DNA of 64,000 nt from Otis tarda (Eukaryota; Chordata; Aves; Otidiformes; Otididae): NCBI GenBank assembly GCA_026413225.1, contig CM048557.1, positions 47,189,371 through 47,253,370 on the forward strand, read 5' to 3'. Below are positions 19,700-40,522 of this stretch, piece by piece; position 1 is the stretch's first letter, and the number at the start of each line of letters is the position of its first letter. The position numbers and the translations under genes are program-made. Under the pieces are notes generated by a model, which saw only the letters and a program-made list of their open reading frames with translations, ran no database searches and had not been told where the DNA came from.

Positions 19700-19750
19700 T
19701 CAGAAATTTCATGATGATCTTAAATCTCTTCTTGAATGGCTGCTGAATAG
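19700..19750 (+). repeat. Distal copy of a perfect 51-bp direct repeat
   Basis: These 51 bases are identical to 23016-23066, just upstream of the first LNS2 exon. Sequence outside the 51 bases is unrelated at both ends. This copy is not followed by a polypyrimidine tract or an AG, so it is not an obvious decoy splice acceptor. Confidence 0.9.
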
Positions 19751-23015: not shown

Positions 23016-23066
23016 TCAGAAATTTCATGATGATCTTAAATCTCTTCTTGAATGGCTGCTGAATAG
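23016..23066 (+). repeat. Proximal copy of the 51-bp direct repeat, abutting a splice acceptor
   Basis: Perfect match to 19700-19750. This copy ends at the exact point where the polypyrimidine tract of the neurexin exon begins, so it covers the usual branch-point zone (24-75 bases before the exon). Confidence 0.9.
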
Positions 23067-33492: not shown

Positions 33493-33497
33493 GTCTC
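33493..33497. repeat. Target-site duplication (left) GTCTC
   Basis: GTCTC directly precedes the TGTGGTGG end of the provirus and is repeated exactly at 40518-40522 after the other end. Five bases is the usual length for ERV-L-type integration. Confidence 0.92.
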
Positions 33498-34192
33498 TGT
33501 GGTGGTTTAGCCCGGATCACCACACAGTTTCTTATTCACCCTCCCCCTACCCAGTGGGACAGGGGAGAGAAATTGGGAAGAAAGGAAAACTCGTGGGTTG
33601 AGATAAAAACAGTTTACTAAAAATACTAAAAACTACAAAGCTAACAGGATATAAGGATATTAATATATACAAAATATACAAAATGAACAATGTACAATTT
33701 CTCACCACCCGATGTCCGAATGACCGACGCAGCCCGTCCCGAGCAGCAATCACAGGAATGACACCGAGCAGCAAGCAAAAGGGGGGAGAGCAAGCTAGCA
33801 AGGTAGAGGGAACGATGCCAGCAAGCAAGTGAGAAGAAAAGGGTGCCAAGGGTGCCCGAATGGATACCCGACAAGAAAGGAATACTAGAAAAGGATTAGG
33901 ATGCCCCCTCCCATGGGCAACCCCCACTTATATACTGAGCATGACGTTTATGGCATGGAATACTCTCTTTGGCCAGTTTGGATCAATTATTCTGTCTGTC
34001 TTTCGCCCAGCTTCCCGCATCTGCACGTTAACGAGACCTTAACGAGACTTGGAAAGCCAGACAGTGTCCTTGGTCTCATTAACAACAACTCGTATCATCA
34101 GAATGTTTTTATCAACATTCTTCACACACGAAATCCAAAACACACCGGCTACTAAGAAGAAAATTAACTCCATCCCTGCTGAAACCAGGACA
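33498..34192 (-). repeat. Provirus 3' LTR
   Basis: 695 bp, TG…CA ends. Identical to the 5' LTR except for six rather than seven Gs near 33781. U3 (minus strand) contains a TATATAAG box at 33927-33934 and a tandem 11-bp repeat (TTAACGAGACC / TTAACGAGACT on the plus strand) at 34028-34049. No canonical AATAAA was found; AGTAAA near 33613-33618 is a candidate variant poly-A signal. Confidence 0.93.
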
Positions 34193-34613: not shown

Positions 34614-36800
34614 TCATTGGCTATTTTCACCTAGAATCAAATCTCCTTGAGGTACACATCGGACTTCCCCATCCTCCCGCATCACCCACCAAGTACATCC
34701 AGGTCCTTGAGCGAAAGCAATCCCACGGATGGGTTTGCCCTTGCCCAGAGGAGGAATAACCCAGACTGTTTTCCCCAACATATTCCTTACATGCACCACA
34801 GGAACTTTATCACCATCTACAGTATGTAAAAGTTCAGATTGGGCAGGGCCAGCTCGATTGATGGATCCCCGAGTGTTGACTAACCAAGTGGCTTTTGCTA
34901 AATGTTTGTCCCAGTTTTTGAAGGTTCCACCACCCATTGCTTTCAGTGTAGTTTTCAGCAGTCCATTGTACCGTTCAATCTTTCCAGAGGCTGGTGCATG
35001 ATAGGGGATGTGATATACCCACTCGATGCCGTGCTCTTTGGCCCAGGTGTCTATGAGGTTGTTTCGGAAATGAGTCCCGTTGTCTGACTCTATTCTGTCT
35101 GGAGTGCCATGTCGCCAGAGAACTTGCTTCTCAAGGCCCAGGATGGTGTTTCGGGCGGTGGCATGGGGTACAGAATATGTCTCTAGCCACCCAGTGGTTG
35201 CTTCCACCATTGTAAGCACATAGCGCTTGCCTTGGCGAGTTTGTGGGAGTGTGATGTAATCAATCTGCCAGGCCTCTCCATATTTGTATTTCAGCCATCG
35301 TCCTCCATACCAAAGAGGCTTTAGCCGCTTGGCTTGCTTAATTGCAGCGCATGTCTCACAGTCGTGGATAACCTGTGCAATAGTGTCCATAGTTAAATCC
35401 ACCCCTCGATCACGAGCCCATTTGTATGTTGCATCTCTTCCTTGATGGCCTGAGGTGTCATGGGCCCACCGAGCTAAAAATAGTTCGCCTCTGTGTTGCC
35501 AGTCTAAGTCCACTTGGGAAACTTTAATCTTAGCAGCCTGATCCGCTTGCTTGTTGTTTTGATGTTCTTCAGTGGCTCGACTCTTGGGTACATGGGCATC
35601 TACATGACGTACTTTTACAACCAGCTTCTCTAACCGGGCAGCAATATCTTGCCACAGTGCGGCAGCCCAGATGGGTTTGCCTCTGCGCTGCCAGTTGCTC
35701 TGCTTCCATTGCTTTAACCACCCCCACAGAGCATTTGCCACCATCCATGAGTCAGTGTAGAGATAGAGCTTTGGCCATTTTTCCCGTTCAGCAATGTCTA
35801 AAGCCAGCTGGATGGCTTTCACCTCCGCAAACTGACTTGATTCACCTTGGCCTTCAGTGGCTTCTGCCACTCGTCGTGTAGGACTCCACACAGCAGCTTT
35901 CCACTTTCGATGTTTTCCTACAATGCGACAGGATCCATCAGTGAACAGAGCATATCGCCTCTCATTTTCTGGGAGGTTGTTGTATGGTGGGGCTTCTTCA
36001 GCACGTGTCACTTCTTCCTCTGGCGGCATTCCAAAATCTTTGCCTTCTGGCCAATCTGTGATTACTTCCAAGATTCCTGGGCGATTGGGGTTTCCTATTC
36101 GGGCTCGCTGTGTGATCAGTGCGACCCATTTACTCCACGTGGCATCAGTTGCATGATGTGTAAAGGGGACCTTCCCTTTGAACATCCAGCCCAGCACTGG
36201 CAGTCGGGGTGCCAGGAGGAGCTGTGCTTCAGTACCAATCACTTCTGAAGCAGCTCGAACTCCTTCGTATGCTGCCAGTATCTCTTTTTCAGTTGGAGTA
36301 TAACGGGCCTCAGATCCTCTATATCCCCGGCTCCAAAAGCCTAGGGGTCGACCTCGAGTCTCTCCTGGTGTTCTCTGCCAGAGACTCCAGGTAGGGCCAT
36401 TCTCCCCGGCTGCGGTATAGAGGATGTTTTTCACATCTTGTCCTGTCCGGACTGGCCCAAGGGCTACTGCATGAACAATCTCCTGTTTAATTTGTTCAAA
36501 GGCTTGTCGCTGTTCAGGGCCCCATTTAAAATCATTCTTCTTTCGAGTCACTTCATAGAGAGGGCTTACAATCATACTGTAATTTGGAATATGCATCCTC
36601 CAGAAACCCACAACACCTAAGAAGGCTTGTGTTTCCTTTTTGTTAGTTGGTGGAGCCATAGCTGTTATTTTGTTGACCACATCCATTGGAATGTGACGAC
36701 GTCCATCTTGCCATTTTACTCCTAAAAACTGGATCTCTTGTGCAGGCCCTTTGACTTTGCTTTGTTTTATTGCAAAACCGGCTTTCAGAAGGATTTGGAT
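34614..36800 (-). CDS. pol: ERV pol, 3' portion: RT connection, RNase H and integrase
   Basis: This is the downstream part of pol, in a different frame from the upstream part because of a one-base break near 36803-36806. The first methionine in the frame is at 36686; residue numbers count from it. RNase H carries the acidic residues D250 (FTDGS), E288 (FAEVKAI), D312 (YTDSW) and D382 (KQADQAA). Integrase follows with a zinc-binding HHCC set (H409, H414, C443, C446) and a complete D,D-35-E triad (D476 in WQIDYI, D535 in ESDNGTHF, E571 in KIERYNG). A C-terminal segment ends at a normal stop. Both nuclease/transferase domains therefore look intact. With no start of its own, this part would not be made unless pol were translated through the break. 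Neighbours are the upstream pol frame and the env-less 3' region. Confidence 0.93.
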   Translation of the reverse strand: MQILLKAGFAIKQSKVKGPAQEIQFLGVKWQDGRRHIPMDVVNKITAMAPPTNKKETQAFLGVVGFWRMHIPNYSMIVSPLYEVTRKKNDFKWGPEQRQAFEQIKQEIVHAVALGPVRTGQDVKNILYTAAGENGPTWSLWQRTPGETRGRPLGFWSRGYRGSEARYTPTEKEILAAYEGVRAASEVIGTEAQLLLAPRLPVLGWMFKGKVPFTHHATDATWSKWVALITQRARIGNPNRPGILEVITDWPEGKDFGMPPEEEVTRAEEAPPYNNLPENERRYALFTDGSCRIVGKHRKWKAAVWSPTRRVAEATEGQGESSQFAEVKAIQLALDIAEREKWPKLYLYTDSWMVANALWGWLKQWKQSNWQRRGKPIWAAALWQDIAARLEKLVVKVRHVDAHVPKSRATEEHQNNKQADQAAKIKVSQVDLDWQHRGELFLARWAHDTSGHQGRDATYKWARDRGVDLTMDTIAQVIHDCETCAAIKQAKRLKPLWYGGRWLKYKYGEAWQIDYITLPQTRQGKRYVLTMVEATTGWLETYSVPHATARNTILGLEKQVLWRHGTPDRIESDNGTHFRNNLIDTWAKEHGIEWVYHIPYHAPASGKIERYNGLLKTTLKAMGGGTFKNWDKHLAKATWLVNTRGSINRAGPAQSELLHTVDGDKVPVVHVRNMLGKTVWVIPPLGKGKPIRGIAFAQGPGCTWWVMREDGEVRCVPQGDLILGENSQ

Positions 36801-37798
36801 TATTTTCTCCCTTTCTCAAAAACTTCTTCTGCTGTGTTGCCCCATACGATGATGTCATCAATGTACTGCAGATGTTCTGGAGCTCCACCCTTTTCTAGTA
36901 CAGTCTGGATCAGTCCATGGCAAATGGTGGGGCTGTGTTTCCACCCCTGGGGCAGTCGATTCCAGGTATACTGGACACCCCTCCAAGTGAAAGCAAACTG
37001 TGGCCTGCATTCTGGTGCCAAAGGGATGGAGAAGAACGCATTGGCAATATCGATGGTGGCATACCACTTGGCTGCTTTTGACTCCAGTTCATACTGAAGT
37101 TCTAGCATGTCTGGCACGGCAGCACTCATTGGTGGTGTAACCTCATTTAGGCCACGATAGTCCACTGTTAATCTCCATTCTCCATTAGATTTTCTCACTG
37201 GCCATATGGGACTGTTAAAGGGTGAGCGGGACTTACTGATGACTCCCTGGCTCTCCAGTCGACGAATCAGCTTGAGGATGGGGATTATGGAGTCTCGGTT
37301 GGTGCGATATTGCCGCCGGTGCACCGTGGTGGTAGCAATTGGTACCTTTTGTTCTTTAACTTTCAGCTTTCCCACAACGGAAGGGTCCTTTGAAAGTCTG
37401 GGCAAGATGGACAGCTGTTTATTTTTCTCTGCCTCCACGGTGGCTATACCAAAAGCCCACCGGTGCCCTTTTGGGTCTTTGAAATACCCACTCCTGAGGT
37501 AATCTATACCAAGAATGCACGGAGCATCTGGGCCAGTCACTATGGGGTGCTTTTGCCACTCATTCCCAGTCAAACTTAGTTCAGCCTCCAATACAGTCAG
37601 CTCTTGGGATCCTCCTGTCACTCCAGAAATACAAATGGGTTGTGCCCCTTTATAGCTTGATGGTATTAGGGTACACTGTGCACCAGTGTCTACTAGAGCT
37701 TTATACTTCTGTGGGTCTGATGTGCCAGGCCATTTAATCCATACAGTCCAGTAAACTCTGTTGTCCCTCTCCTCCGCCTGGCTGGAGGCAGGGCCCCT
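36800..37798 (-). CDS. pol: ERV pro-pol, 5' portion: protease and RT palm, truncated by a frameshift
   Basis: Directly after the gag UAG and in the same frame. Protease is recognisable from ALVDTGAQCTLI (active-site DTG) and from ILGIDYL nearer its C-terminus. Reverse transcriptase follows with ATIDIANAFF (first catalytic Asp), LPQGWKHSP and YIDD (catalytic Asp pair). The frame then meets TAA at 36800-36802, exactly where an A run (36803-36806) has lost one base relative to an open continuation in the next frame. The result lacks the RT thumb and connection. With no separate initiator, expression would need read-through of the gag stop. Protease plus RT fused in frame behind gag, with no separate pro frame, resembles gammaretroviral organisation. 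Confidence 0.92.
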   Translation of the reverse strand, partial: RGPASSQAEERDNRVYWTVWIKWPGTSDPQKYKALVDTGAQCTLIPSSYKGAQPICISGVTGGSQELTVLEAELSLTGNEWQKHPIVTGPDAPCILGIDYLRSGYFKDPKGHRWAFGIATVEAEKNKQLSILPRLSKDPSVVGKLKVKEQKVPIATTTVHRRQYRTNRDSIIPILKLIRRLESQGVISKSRSPFNSPIWPVRKSNGEWRLTVDYRGLNEVTPPMSAAVPDMLELQYELESKAAKWYATIDIANAFFSIPLAPECRPQFAFTWRGVQYTWNRLPQGWKHSPTICHGLIQTVLEKGGAPEHLQYIDDIIVWGNTAEEVFEKGRK

Positions 37799-37801
37799 CT
37801 A
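37771..37801 (-). promoter_or_regulatory. Gag UAG stop with downstream stem-loop: candidate read-through signal
   Basis: The gag frame ends in UAG (37799-37801) and the same frame stays open for 333 codons afterwards. Ten bases after the stop a GC-rich hairpin can form: CCTCC at 37784-37788 with GGAGG at 37771-37775, around an 8-base loop. A UAG followed by a structured element is how gammaretroviruses make Gag-Pol by stop-codon suppression. A pseudoknot has not been shown here. Confidence 0.6.
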
Positions 37802-39682
37802 GTCCTGTTTATAATATTTTCTATTCACTTTCTGTGAATATGAATCAGAAGTTCCTTCCATAGGATCAGAGGTGAAATCAGCCCTTCTACGCTGTCTGGG
37901 GAACTGCCCACTGGAGACTGGAGCAGCAAATTGCCTGGAAGAACCTCCCTTTATGATTGTTTTACCTCGCAACTCACGTACACGTGCCTCTAGGGCCGAG
38001 GTAGGCTCTCCATCCCACTTCCTCATATCCTCTCCTTGGTCACGCAAGGTAAACCATAGGTCATCTCGTCGGGAGTACCGTCTCCCTTGAGCAGGAGGAG
38101 GATGAGGTCTTCTTCTAATAGCTGAGATATTGATCTGTGCAGGTGGGGAGCAAGAATCTTCCAGTTTCTGACACACCTCAGATAGTTTTTCTAACAGTTT
38201 TTCAAACTGGCTTTCAGATTTCTCAGTCAGTCTTTCTATAGCTGAGACACAGGCCCGCATCGGGGAAGAGAGATTGTCTTCATATTGTCGGAGCTGGTTA
38301 GCCACTGCACGTACTGGTGGCATCTCATCATCTTTCCAACTCATTGCTGCCAATGAGTTGGCATACAATGATGGTGCACTCTGTACAAATTTCCGCCACA
38401 TGGGTCGGGTGCATTCAATTTCATCTGGATCTACGGATGTCCGTGGGTCATCCAGGTTATGATAAATCAGCTCCCGAACAGCTAATTCTCTCAGAAACTG
38501 GATACCTCTCTCCATGGTGGTCCACTTGCTTGGGTGGCATACAATATCTTCCTTAAAGAAATACCTGTCCCTCACACCTGACAGGAGTCGCCTCCAGAGG
38601 CTGCAGGCTGCTGACTCTCTTCCGATCGCCCTGTCAATGGCTGCTTCCCTAGACAGGGATCCCAGCTGCCTGGCTTCCCTGCCTTCTAATTCCAGGCTAC
38701 TGGCCCCTCTGTCCCAGCATCGGAGCAACCAGGTGACAAGTTGCTCACCTTGATTACGGCTGAAATCTTTTCGCATATCTCGCAGCTCACTCAGGGATAG
38801 GGACCGGGTGACTACCTCTCCTTCTGCCTCTCCCTGATCATGCGATGGGCCTGGTTCATCATCATCTTTCACTATGCGAACTGATTTTTTGGTGTATTTC
38901 TTCTGTACAGGGGCAACTGACACTGGTGTAGATTGCTTTTTTGGTTTCTCTTTGGTACTGCTGGGCGAGGTTTGAGTAGCCACAGCGTCTGGCGTGGGGG
39001 CTGAAGCAATCGCAGTGCCCGTAGCCGGGGCTGCGGTAGCTGCAGTGCCTGCTGTAGCGGCTGAAGTAGTTGCAGTATTTGTAGCAGCAGTTTGAGTAGC
39101 CACAGTGTCTGTTGCGGGGATTGGAGGAGCCATAATACTTTTAAAAAATTGTTTAAACTTAATCAATATCAAGATCTGAGATAGCTGCAAGAGACTTGTC
39201 ACCATGAACATGGTGCTAGGGGTATCAAAAGGGTATTCAAAATTCTCAAAAGCTGTTGAAATTAGCTTGGCAAGGTGGGGATAGCTGTAAACAGATGTTC
39301 CCCCTGCGGCCTGGCTTCCCGGAACAAAACAACAGGTATAGTTCCAAACAACACCCACAAGATGGCTCCCGAAATACCCGGGTGGAGGTGCCTCTGCCTC
39401 CTCGGTCTGCACACTGCCCGCTGCCATTGAGTACAGATACGAAACCGATCCTGTTACCAGTGATCTCACCAAACCAACCAGTGCCACACAGCACAGCAGA
39501 GCGATACCTTTAATCCCAGAATCGATAAGCCGTGTATAAACACCAACAACCAGCATATACAGCAAGTAGGGTGCTATCCAGTACAGCTCTAAAAACAACT
39601 GCGAGAACAAATAAAACAACATTGTGCCCAGCGATGACCAAACCAGCTTAATGAACACTTGTAACAAATCTGTTTTCAACAC
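37799..39682 (-). CDS. gag: ERV gag, with a hydrophobic N-terminal leader
   Basis: Structural polyprotein frame of about 627 codons. The first ~180 codons are markedly hydrophobic, with likely membrane-spanning runs near residues 12-30, 33-50, 57-79 and 155-178. They are followed by an Ala/Thr/Pro-rich linker, a basic KKYTKKSVRIVK patch, a helical capsid-like region (LSLSELRDMRKDFS, LVTWLLRCWDRG, RPMWRKFVQSAPSLYANSLA) and a basic Arg/Pro-rich tail. No CCHC zinc knuckle is present, and no Met-Gly myristoylation start. The frame opens with GTG. The first true ATG is at 39620-39622, and a later ATG at 39131-39133 (MAPPIPATDT) has a much stronger context, with A at -3 and G at +4. The latter may be the ordinary Gag start, with the leader an in-frame extension. 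The frame is intact up to UAG. Confidence 0.88.
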   Translation of the reverse strand: MLKTDLLQVFIKLVWSSLGTMLFYLFSQLFLELYWIAPYLLYMLVVGVYTRLIDSGIKGIALLCCVALVGLVRSLVTGSVSYLYSMAAGSVQTEEAEAPPPGYFGSHLVGVVWNYTCCFVPGSQAAGGTSVYSYPHLAKLISTAFENFEYPFDTPSTMFMVTSLLQLSQILILIKFKQFFKSIMAPPIPATDTVATQTAATNTATTSAATAGTAATAAPATGTAIASAPTPDAVATQTSPSSTKEKPKKQSTPVSVAPVQKKYTKKSVRIVKDDDEPGPSHDQGEAEGEVVTRSLSLSELRDMRKDFSRNQGEQLVTWLLRCWDRGASSLELEGREARQLGSLSREAAIDRAIGRESAACSLWRRLLSGVRDRYFFKEDIVCHPSKWTTMERGIQFLRELAVRELIYHNLDDPRTSVDPDEIECTRPMWRKFVQSAPSLYANSLAAMSWKDDEMPPVRAVANQLRQYEDNLSSPMRACVSAIERLTEKSESQFEKLLEKLSEVCQKLEDSCSPPAQINISAIRRRPHPPPAQGRRYSRRDDLWFTLRDQGEDMRKWDGEPTSALEARVRELRGKTIIKGGSSRQFAAPVSSGQFPRQRRRADFTSDPMEGTSDSYSQKVNRKYYKQD

Positions 39683-39717: not shown

Positions 39718-39790
39718 GGACTGACCGGGGCTTGAACCTTGGATCCTCAGACTAAGGTCTGATGATCTCACGACTGATCTAGTGAGGCCC
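39718..39790 (-). other. tRNA-Lys-like sequence in the proviral leader
   Basis: Read on the minus strand, these 73 bases follow a tRNA layout. A 4-bp D stem (GATC with GATC) encloses AGTCGTGA. A 5-bp anticodon stem (TCAGA with TCTGA) encloses a six-base loop, CCTTAG, containing CTT. A T-loop follows in GGTTCAAGCCCC, a good B-box match. Compared with vertebrate tRNA-Lys as I recall it, the D stem is changed on both sides in a compensating way. The acceptor stem (about 4 of 7 pairs) and T stem (3 of 5) are poor, and the anticodon loop is one base short. It is not a normal tRNA gene. It starts next to the primer-binding site and has the same sense as the viral RNA. Confidence 0.65.
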
Positions 39791-39796
39791 TTTCGA

Positions 39797-39814
39797 GCCC
39801 CACGTTGGGCGCCA
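39797..39814 (-). other. Primer-binding site, tRNA-Lys type
   Basis: Minus strand TGGCGCCCAACGTGGGGC is the reverse complement of the 3' end of a tRNA-Lys (CTT-type) including CCA. Complementarity continues into the T loop, giving about 23 bases (39792-39814). Seven bases separate it from the 5' LTR, more than the usual zero to three. Confidence 0.9.
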
Positions 39815-39821
39815 AAAAGAC

Positions 39822-40517
39822 TGTGGTGGTTTAGCCCGGATCACCACACAGTTTCTTATTCACCCTCCCCCTACCCAGTGGGACAGGGGAGAGAAATTGG
39901 GAAGAAAGGAAAACTCGTGGGTTGAGATAAAAACAGTTTACTAAAAATACTAAAAACTACAAAGCTAACAGGATATAAGGATATTAATATATACAAAATA
40001 TACAAAATGAACAATGTACAATTTCTCACCACCCGATGTCCGAATGACCGACGCAGCCCGTCCCGAGCAGCAATCACAGGAATGACACCGAGCAGCAAGC
40101 AAAAGGGGGGGAGAGCAAGCTAGCAAGGTAGAGGGAACGATGCCAGCAAGCAAGTGAGAAGAAAAGGGTGCCAAGGGTGCCCGAATGGATACCCGACAAG
40201 AAAGGAATACTAGAAAAGGATTAGGATGCCCCCTCCCATGGGCAACCCCCACTTATATACTGAGCATGACGTTTATGGCATGGAATACTCTCTTTGGCCA
40301 GTTTGGATCAATTATTCTGTCTGTCTTTCGCCCAGCTTCCCGCATCTGCACGTTAACGAGACCTTAACGAGACTTGGAAAGCCAGACAGTGTCCTTGGTC
40401 TCATTAACAACAACTCGTATCATCAGAATGTTTTTATCAACATTCTTCACACACGAAATCCAAAACACACCGGCTACTAAGAAGAAAATTAACTCCATCC
40501 CTGCTGAAACCAGGACA
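39822..40517 (-). repeat. Provirus 5' LTR
   Basis: 696 bp, TG…CA ends, identical to the 3' LTR but for one extra G in the G run near 40105. This copy would drive proviral transcription on the minus strand. Confidence 0.93.
40252..40259 (-). promoter_or_regulatory. TATA box of the provirus promoter (5' LTR)
   Basis: Minus strand TATATAAG. Transcription would be expected to start about 25-30 bases further along the minus strand (near 40225), giving a long R-U5 of about 400 bases. The matching box in the 3' LTR is at 33927-33934. Confidence 0.7.
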
Positions 40518-40522
40518 GTCTC
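40518..40522. repeat. Target-site duplication (right) GTCTC
   Basis: Exact copy of 33493-33497, flanking the outer end of the 5' LTR. Confidence 0.92.

What the first reader, a model, noticed from the sequence alone, without database searches (positions are those of the whole stretch)
39718..39821. A tRNA-Lys-like domain sits in sense orientation directly behind the tRNA-Lys primer-binding site of a young provirus
Seen: on the minus strand, 73 bases next to the primer-binding site fold like a tRNA, with a perfect 4-bp D stem (GATC/GATC), a perfect 5-bp anticodon stem (TCAGA/TCTGA) around a loop containing CTT, and a B-box-like T loop. Known: HIV-1 RNA has a small tRNA-Lys-like element near its primer-binding site that binds lysyl-tRNA synthetase and helps deliver the primer. 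Inference: this avian ERV-L may have captured a whole tRNA-Lys body and kept its D and anticodon arms, with a paired change in the D stem relative to normal tRNA-Lys, to recruit the synthetase or the primer. Simple read-through of the primer would give the antisense, so a separate capture event is needed. I know of no description of this in avian ERV-L.
Basis: partly seen in the sequence, partly recalled or inferred. Interest (0 to 1): 0.8.

Follow-up and report, generated by a model that had tools for sequence, protein, structure and literature searches.

The report
Captured host tRNA-Lys in bird retrovirus
A lineage of bird endogenous retroviruses carries a copy of a whole host lysine tRNA, in sense orientation, right next to the site where a lysine tRNA starts its DNA synthesis; the part resembling the tRNA's anticodon arm has been best preserved, hinting that it helps handle that primer.

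Summary
Confirmed and enlarged. Window 39719-39788 (minus strand) is a decayed sense copy of tRNA-Lys-UUU, positions 1-72, directly behind a primer-binding site for the other isoacceptor, tRNA-Lys-CUU. No shuffle of 20,000 reaches its match to recalled human tRNA-Lys; Rfam's tRNA model spans it at 21.4 bits, below the gathering score. In the window's own genome I aligned 29 divergent leaders with the insert; one is 69/72 identical to a host tRNA-Lys-UUU gene and scores 67.8 bits. Ten related leaders lack it and carry once the short repeat that flanks it, so it is an insertion with a short duplication. The anticodon arm is the best-conserved of 182 windows; 25 of 29 keep a lysine anticodon. The D stem changed in pairs, with modest, tree-dependent support; acceptor and T stems are not maintained. 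In 8 of 14 younger leaders a lengthened anticodon hairpin is predicted instead of a cloverleaf. Best reading: a captured tRNA remodelled into an anticodon-arm mimic that handles lysyl-tRNA synthetase or the primer, as HIV-1's tRNA-like element does. Capture is near certain; function is inferred.

The parts
39822..40517 (-). 5' LTR of the provirus (TGTCCTGG...ACCACCACA)
   Evidence: repeat and blastn comparison with the other LTR; 1 mismatch and 1 gap in 702 aligned bases
33498..34192 (-). 3' LTR
   Evidence: end points by register with the 5' LTR
40518..40522 (-). target-site duplication GAGAC, 5' side
   Evidence: read
33493..33497 (-). target-site duplication GAGAC, 3' side
   Evidence: read
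39792..39814 (-). primer-binding site; 18-nt core 39797-39814 plus 5 further bases, complementary to the 3' end of tRNA-Lys-CTT with CCA
   Evidence: tRNA-Lys-CTT genes of the same genome read
39719..39788 (-). sense copy of tRNA-Lys-UUU, positions 1-72, two bases shorter
   Evidence: covariance model, alignment, shuffles; 56 of 70 identical to the genome's own tRNA-Lys-TTT gene, measured on L001, which equals the window over the 151-base leader query
39764..39779 (-). D arm: GATC/GATC, paired change from GCTC/GAGC
   Evidence: table
39747..39762 (-). anticodon arm TCAGA-CCUUAG-UCUGA; best-conserved stretch of the leader in the family
39742..39745 (-). GATC of the variable loop, predicted to pair with GATC 39767-39764 and lengthen the anticodon stem
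   Evidence: mean pair probability 0.97 in L001; EX helix
39711..39718 (-). CTGAAGGG, right copy of the short direct repeat that flanks the insert
39789..39797 (-). CTCGAAAGG, left copy of the repeat, overlapping the end of the PBS; in this copy only 4 bases (AAGG) match the right copy without a gap
37799..39682 (-). gag-like open frame (627 aa)
   Evidence: 253 relatives at E <= 0.001, of the 120 listed the named ones nearly all from birds; no Pfam match
36800..37621 (-). pol open frame with reverse transcriptase domain
   Evidence: RVT_1, E 7.8e-21
34614..36686 (-). pol open frame with RNase H and integrase domains

Best explanation
Shown: leaders of this bird retrovirus lineage carry, just behind the PBS, a sense copy of host tRNA-Lys-UUU (positions 1-72) flanked by a short duplication of the leader, and related leaders without it exist. 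Inferred: the copy was made by reverse transcriptase jumping onto a packaged tRNA and back, or by another retroposition. Inferred: it stayed because its anticodon arm imitates tRNA-Lys, so that lysyl-tRNA synthetase (LysRS), which brings primer tRNA-Lys into HIV-1 particles and may do so here, binds next to the PBS and lets the primer go there. In the younger, successful clade the acceptor and T stems, which RNase P and tRNase Z need (recalled), decayed, while the anticodon arm was kept and lengthened into a hairpin. My confidence is about 0.97 for the capture, about 0.65 that the anticodon arm has been under constraint, and about 0.45 for the LysRS or primer role.
For: tRNA identity: L073 67.8 bits; ARAGORN names L073 tRNA-Lys ttt; L073 69/72; 6 of 22 sense leaders scanned pass Rfam's gathering score (L073, L081; L092, L121, L124, L125). 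All 29 aligned divergent leaders fit a tRNA-Lys-TTT gene better than tRNA-Lys-CTT. Insertion with short duplication: 10 leaders without insert carry the repeat region once (read by eye); a repeat of at least 5 nt flanks the insert in 15 of 29 leaders, 9 of 20 against 0-1 of 20 at four control offsets. The anticodon arm is the top 17-column window of 182, identity 0.891 against 0.774 downstream and 0.735-0.753 in the other arms; permutation over non-CpG columns 281/20000. Lysine anticodon in 25 of 29. D stem: double paired changes 4 against null 0.78, 26/5000, with the flank tree; D pairing 52/5000 and 123/5000 for 49 rows. Extended stem paired more than null, 88/5000 and 68/5000. The PBS takes a tRNA-Lys primer. 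HIV-1 precedent: passages of PMC9315659, PMC4810235, PMC11181671.
Against: No binding data. Pairing statistics are weak or mixed: with midpoint rooting doubles are not significant (936/2000 and 248/2000), though paired cells are high (12/2000 and 59/2000); coincident changes at true pairs do not beat random matchings of the same columns (1490/5000 and 676/5000); with the full tree D doubles give 549/5000 and D pairing 350/5000, and two of the four D doubles of the flank tree are a change and its reversal next to L073. Acceptor and T stems are not significantly above null. The anticodon stem hardly varies, so it gives no covariation and its pairing is not above null (1430/5000 and 2267/5000). 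4 of 29 rows have no lysine anticodon (L081, L116, L121, L137 by its deleted loop). U33, contacted by human LysRS (passage of PMC11878792), is lost in the younger clade and in the window. 11 of 20 leaders gave no tRNA match at E <= 10, L001 among them. Most older copies fold into neither structure alone. The position differs from HIV-1 (behind, not before, the PBS).
Confidence: 0.45

Rival explanations
1. Passive passenger: the tRNA copy was captured once, did no harm, and has been inherited and is decaying; conservation of the anticodon arm reflects low mutability or chance.
For: Acceptor and T stems and the Pol III boxes decay; pairing over all 21 pairs is not significantly above null (449/5000 and 1492/5000) and coincident changes do not beat random matchings; tRNA-like identity overall (0.787) is close to that of the downstream leader (0.801) in 20 rows.
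Against: The anticodon arm ranks first of 182 windows, and remains high when CpG-type columns are left out (281/20000); paired D-stem changes of two kinds.
Confidence: 0.33
2. The remnant works as an ordinary packaging, dimerisation or leader-folding hairpin, without any link to LysRS.
For: A stable extended hairpin is predicted in 8 of 14 younger rows; retroviral leaders behind the PBS usually hold packaging signals (recalled).
Against: 25 of 29 rows keep UUU or CUU in the loop; older copies show no such hairpin.
Confidence: 0.17
3. A tRNA-derived SINE or tRNA gene inserted in the leader and acts as a Pol III unit.
For: Sense orientation, complete 5' end and a short flanking duplication; the window family still meets my B-box pattern.
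Against: My A-box pattern is met in 1 of 20 and my B-box pattern in 8 of 20 leaders (both patterns recalled and strict); no SINE tail follows C72.
Confidence: 0.03
4. Chance resemblance.
For: 21.4 bits is below Rfam's gathering score.
Against: 0 of 20,000 shuffles and the relatives with 31-68 bits.
Confidence: 0.005

Closest known systems
HIV-1 tRNA-like element (TLE) next to the PBS
   Same: Hairpin imitating the tRNA-Lys anticodon arm beside a PBS for tRNA-Lys (passages seen: PMC9315659, PMC4810235, PMC11181671)
   Different: HIV-1's lies just upstream of the PBS and is described as mimicry; here a real tRNA sequence was captured, lies downstream, and is of another isoacceptor than the primer. 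LysRS binding is shown there, not here.
Primer read-through copies of tRNA in retroviral DNA
   Same: tRNA letters next to the PBS; seen in this genome as antisense tRNA-Lys-CTT (L082, L084, L085)
   Different: Those are antisense and of the primer tRNA; this is sense and of another isoacceptor.
tRNA-derived SINEs and tRNA pseudogenes (e.g. the CR1-mobilised tRNA-Ile SINE of finches, named in a passage of PMC6523648)
   Same: Complete 5' end and short flanking duplication
   Different: No tail, one fixed place inside a retroviral leader, spread as part of the provirus.
3' tRNA-like structures of plant RNA viruses
   Same: tRNA mimicry in a viral RNA
   Different: At the 3' end, and part of RNA replication rather than beside a reverse-transcription primer (recalled).

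Membership tests
tRNA gene (Rfam RF00005) | covariance score at or above the gathering score of 29 | tested here: not met
   window 21.4 bits. Relatives above it: L073, L081, L092, L121, L124, L125, 6 of 22 sense leaders scanned
tRNA-Lys-derived sequence (by descent) | significant sequence identity to tRNA-Lys in sense | tested here: met
   0 of 20,000 shuffles; 56/70 for L001, 69/72 for L073
HIV-1-type tRNA-like element | PBS for tRNA-Lys close by | tested here: met
   23-nt match to the 3' end of tRNA-Lys-CTT
HIV-1-type tRNA-like element | hairpin with a lysine-anticodon-like loop | tested here: inconclusive
   predicted, not probed: mean pair probability 0.98 for the anticodon stem in L001; loop CCUUAG holds CUU but has lost U33
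HIV-1-type tRNA-like element | located upstream of the PBS | tested here: not met
   downstream
HIV-1-type tRNA-like element | binds LysRS and aids primer placement | not testable with these tools
   needs RNA and protein
ERV-L (class III) | 5-bp target-site duplication | tested here: met
   GAGAC on both sides; that 5 bp fits ERV-L is recalled
ERV-L (class III) | dUTPase in pol | tested here: inconclusive
   not among Pfam matches of the three open frames scanned; other stretches were not scanned; dUTPase as an ERV-L trait is recalled
ERV-L (class III) | reverse transcriptase groups with ERV-L | not tested
tRNA-derived SINE | A and B boxes and a 3' tail | tested here: not met
   window family (L001) meets my B-box but not my A-box pattern; after C72 follows the retroviral leader, no tail

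The most novel reading that the evidence does not exclude
A retrovirus lineage took a complete host tRNA-Lys into its genomic RNA in sense beside its PBS and turned it, from cloverleaf to lone anticodon hairpin, into a LysRS decoy for primer placement: independent evolution of what HIV-1 has, by capture instead of mimicry. One further leader (L143), nearer to tRNA-Lys-CTT (score 61 against 49), with an anticodon stem that is paired although different, would mean that tRNA-Lys was captured more than once at this place.
Probability: 0.35. Interest if true: 0.9.

Novelty: new variant of a known kind. Interest (0 to 1): 0.76.

Why it matters
If the function holds, two unrelated retroviruses would have reached the same answer to primer placement, one by mimicry and one by capturing the tRNA itself, which would suggest that LysRS handling beside the PBS is a general need of viruses primed by tRNA-Lys. 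Even without function, it is a record of a whole host tRNA entering a retroviral genome, with empty and filled leaders side by side, and it gives a testable series from near-perfect cloverleaf (L073) to lone hairpin (window). The nine paper searches I made (open-licence PubMed Central only) listed no description of it.

Tried and rejected
Chance match: rejected. Antisense read-through of the primer: rejected for this element by orientation and isoacceptor; true cases seen in L082, L084, L085. Pol III role: not supported. Relatives in viral contigs: PBS pattern 0 stretches, pol 0, gag 15 pattern matches but no relative, three tRNA/leader patterns 0 each; a PBS-plus-sense-tRNA pattern gave 39 stretches, of which 12 carry an ARAGORN tRNA gene at the match; I took all 39 for phage or other microbial DNA from their letters and contig names and did not classify them further. 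Genome contigs: PBS pattern 0; gag 58 pattern matches, no relative. Cloverleaf fold by energy alone: not obtained for the window family. Midpoint-rooted covariation test: doubles not significant. Random-matching control: not significant.

Rows dropped: near-identical leaders were collapsed (83 loci to 49 rows); I chose 20 rows by eye for and 29 rows for (those 20 plus L134-L142), leaving out most young-family rows. L143 and the 10 leaders without insert were left out of the counts. The loci were found by similarity to tRNA-bearing leaders, so the 29 are no estimate of how common the insert is. Fewer places were scored than the first look found (40 scored of 266, 129, 144, 135 and 298; 16 of 16), and of the 42 places listed I fetched 20; the rest were held already or not looked at.

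Full report
What is there. The provirus lies on the minus strand between LTRs at 39822-40517 and 33498-34192 (1 mismatch and 1 gap in 702 aligned bases, 5-bp duplication GAGAC). Its gag-like frame has relatives in many birds, and pol frames hold RT, RNase H and integrase. The PBS at 39792-39814 fits the 3' end of tRNA-Lys-CTT with CCA over 23 bases. After three more bases, at 39788, starts a sense copy of tRNA-Lys that runs to 39719.

Is it real? Rfam's tRNA model matches over its full length at 21.4 bits, under the gathering score; ARAGORN and the gathering-level scan find nothing. Local alignment to recalled human tRNA-Lys-TTT scores 72, with 0 of 20,000 dinucleotide shuffles reaching it (maximum 47); tRNA-Lys-CTT scores 60, also 0 of 20,000. 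A search of the own genome with recalled tRNA-Lys-TTT gave 16 places: on reading 7 tRNA-Lys genes, 6 retroviral leaders with a sense insert and 3 antisense copies beside LTR ends. Against four of those tRNA genes as references, 28 of 29 aligned leaders score highest with the tRNA-Lys-TTT gene L071 and one (L140) ties between the two TTT genes; none prefers CTT.

The family. A search with the window's leader gave 40 scored copies of 266 candidates, all at 98-100% and the window's own among them. The older leaders' LTR and 5' internal pieces are 66-75% identical to the window where at least 100 bases align. In L073 the insert is 69/72 identical to the host tRNA gene, scores 67.8 bits and is called tRNA-Lys (ttt) by ARAGORN. 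L081, L092, L121, L124 and L125 also pass the gathering score, 6 of 22 sense leaders scanned. In one search 11 of 20 leaders gave no tRNA match at E <= 10, among them L001, which equals the window over 151 bases; the smaller and so more permissive search does find the window's. The window family is thus at the decayed end: D stem 4/4, anticodon stem 5/5, acceptor 5/7, T stem 2/5 in L001.

How it came in. A later search brought ten leaders of the same LTR group without any insert, where the PBS runs straight into a single copy of the repeat, as in CTCGAAGGG then TTCGAGATAA in L145 (read by eye). Leaders with the insert carry that repeat on both sides: a shared stretch of at least 5 bases in 15 of 29 leaders, and in 9 of 20 against 0 or 1 of 20 at four control offsets; in the window only 4 bases are left. 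So this is an insertion of tRNA positions 1-72 with a short duplication. Most of the ten have another downstream part and may be a lineage that never had it; L150 and L152 share the downstream part of filled leaders and might also be deletions. Copy-choice by reverse transcriptase onto a packaged tRNA explains sense orientation and the exact 5' end; a LINE-type insertion into a provirus is not excluded. Antisense tRNA-Lys-CTT copies of near full length beside LTR ends (L082, L084, L085) show what primer read-through looks like.

Is it maintained? The anticodon arm is the best-conserved 17-column window of 182 in the leader, for 20 rows and for 29: identity 0.891 against 0.735 (D arm), 0.753 (T arm), 0.753 (acceptor), 0.774 (downstream) and 0.718 (LTR end with PBS). 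With CpG-type columns left out, the permutation gives 281/20000. 25 of 29 rows keep UUU or CUU; the CUU of the window family and that of L091 look like separate changes between two lysine anticodons. The D stem changed from C11-G24 to A-U in the younger clade and to U-A in L091 and L135. The tree-aware null gives, for 29 rows, D doubles 26/5000 (flank tree; two of the four doubles are a change and its reversal next to L073) and 549/5000 (full tree), D pairing 247/5000 and 350/5000, doubles over all 21 pairs 224/5000 and 295/5000, pairing over all 21 pairs 449/5000 and 1492/5000; for 49 rows D pairing 52/5000 and 123/5000, doubles over all pairs 500/5000 and 72/5000, while coincident changes at true pairs do not beat random matchings of the same columns (1490/5000 and 676/5000). 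A version with midpoint root gave no excess of doubles (936/2000, 248/2000) but high pairing (12/2000, 59/2000). Acceptor and T stems are not significantly above null; the anticodon stem varies too little to test. I read this as good evidence for conservation of the anticodon arm and moderate, tree-dependent evidence for the D stem.

A change of structure. Predicted pairing shows that in L001, L092, L112, L117, L118, L121, L124 and L125, 8 of the 14 six-base-loop rows in that set, the anticodon stem forms (0.81-0.98) and is prolonged by GATC 22-25 with its partner at 45-48 (0.61-0.99), instead of a D arm. In the other 12 of the 20 rows the extension stays at or under 0.17 when folded free (L122 reaches 0.72 with the PBS held single-stranded), and most older copies form neither structure. 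The extension is paired more often than the null (88/5000 and 68/5000). The lineage seems to have gone from a cloverleaf to a long anticodon hairpin.

Function. HIV-1 has a hairpin beside its PBS that imitates the anticodon arm, binds LysRS and lets the primer go next to the PBS (passages of PMC9315659, PMC4810235, PMC11181671). The present element has the same neighbourhood and the same kind of arm, but came by capture, lies on the other side of the PBS and is of the other isoacceptor. LysRS serves both isoacceptors (recalled). Against it stand the loss of U33, which human LysRS contacts (passages of PMC11878792), and the absence of any binding test. Loss of acceptor and T stems would spare the viral RNA from RNase P and tRNase Z; this is my inference.

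A possible second capture. L143 has a sense insert at the same place that scores 61 with tRNA-Lys-CTT and 49 with tRNA-Lys-TTT, the only one of 30 to prefer CTT, and its anticodon stem CGAGA/TCTCG is fully paired with a change on both sides against tRNA-Lys-CTT. It is one locus, its loop has lost two bases with the lysine letters, and its 3' part is broken, so this is a lead.

Literature. Nine searches of open-licence PubMed Central listed no paper on a captured sense tRNA in a bird retrovirus; I saw listings with the starts of abstracts and, for six papers, passages found by terms.

Noticed in passing
L082 484-557, L084 491-563, L085 about 500-548: Antisense tRNA-Lys-CTT copies that continue the PBS beside an LTR end: primer read-through past the usual stop, integrated. 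In L082 an inverted piece of the same LTR end follows.
   Followed up: partly
L143 (G000 C14:19747360-19747630): Sense tRNA insert nearer to tRNA-Lys-CTT than TTT at the same place of a related leader; possible second capture.
   Followed up: partly
L144-L153: Ten leaders of the same LTR group without the tRNA insert, with a single copy of the flanking repeat.
   Followed up: partly
window 39767-39786: In the young family CTCAC and GTGAG can form a 5-bp hairpin that competes with the D stem; the letters of L112, L118 and L121 do not allow all five pairs.
   Followed up: partly
gag 37799-39682: A protein filed under Klebsiella pneumoniae (FK518_27370, contig of 1903 bases) is 95% identical to this gag over 71% of it, which suggests bird DNA in a bacterial assembly.
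   Followed up: no
gag 37799-39682: Relatives in crane, hawk and owl records are named ubiquitin carboxyl-terminal hydrolase 4, apparently gag misnamed or fused in annotation.
   Followed up: no
window 19700-19750 and 23016-23066: An exact 51-base direct repeat, 3316 bases apart.
   Followed up: no
G000 C12:7926139-7926211 and C12:7470325-7470397: Two identical tRNA-Lys-TTT genes with the same upstream flank in opposite orientation; this gene, not the human-like one on C32, is the nearest to the captured copies.
   Followed up: no
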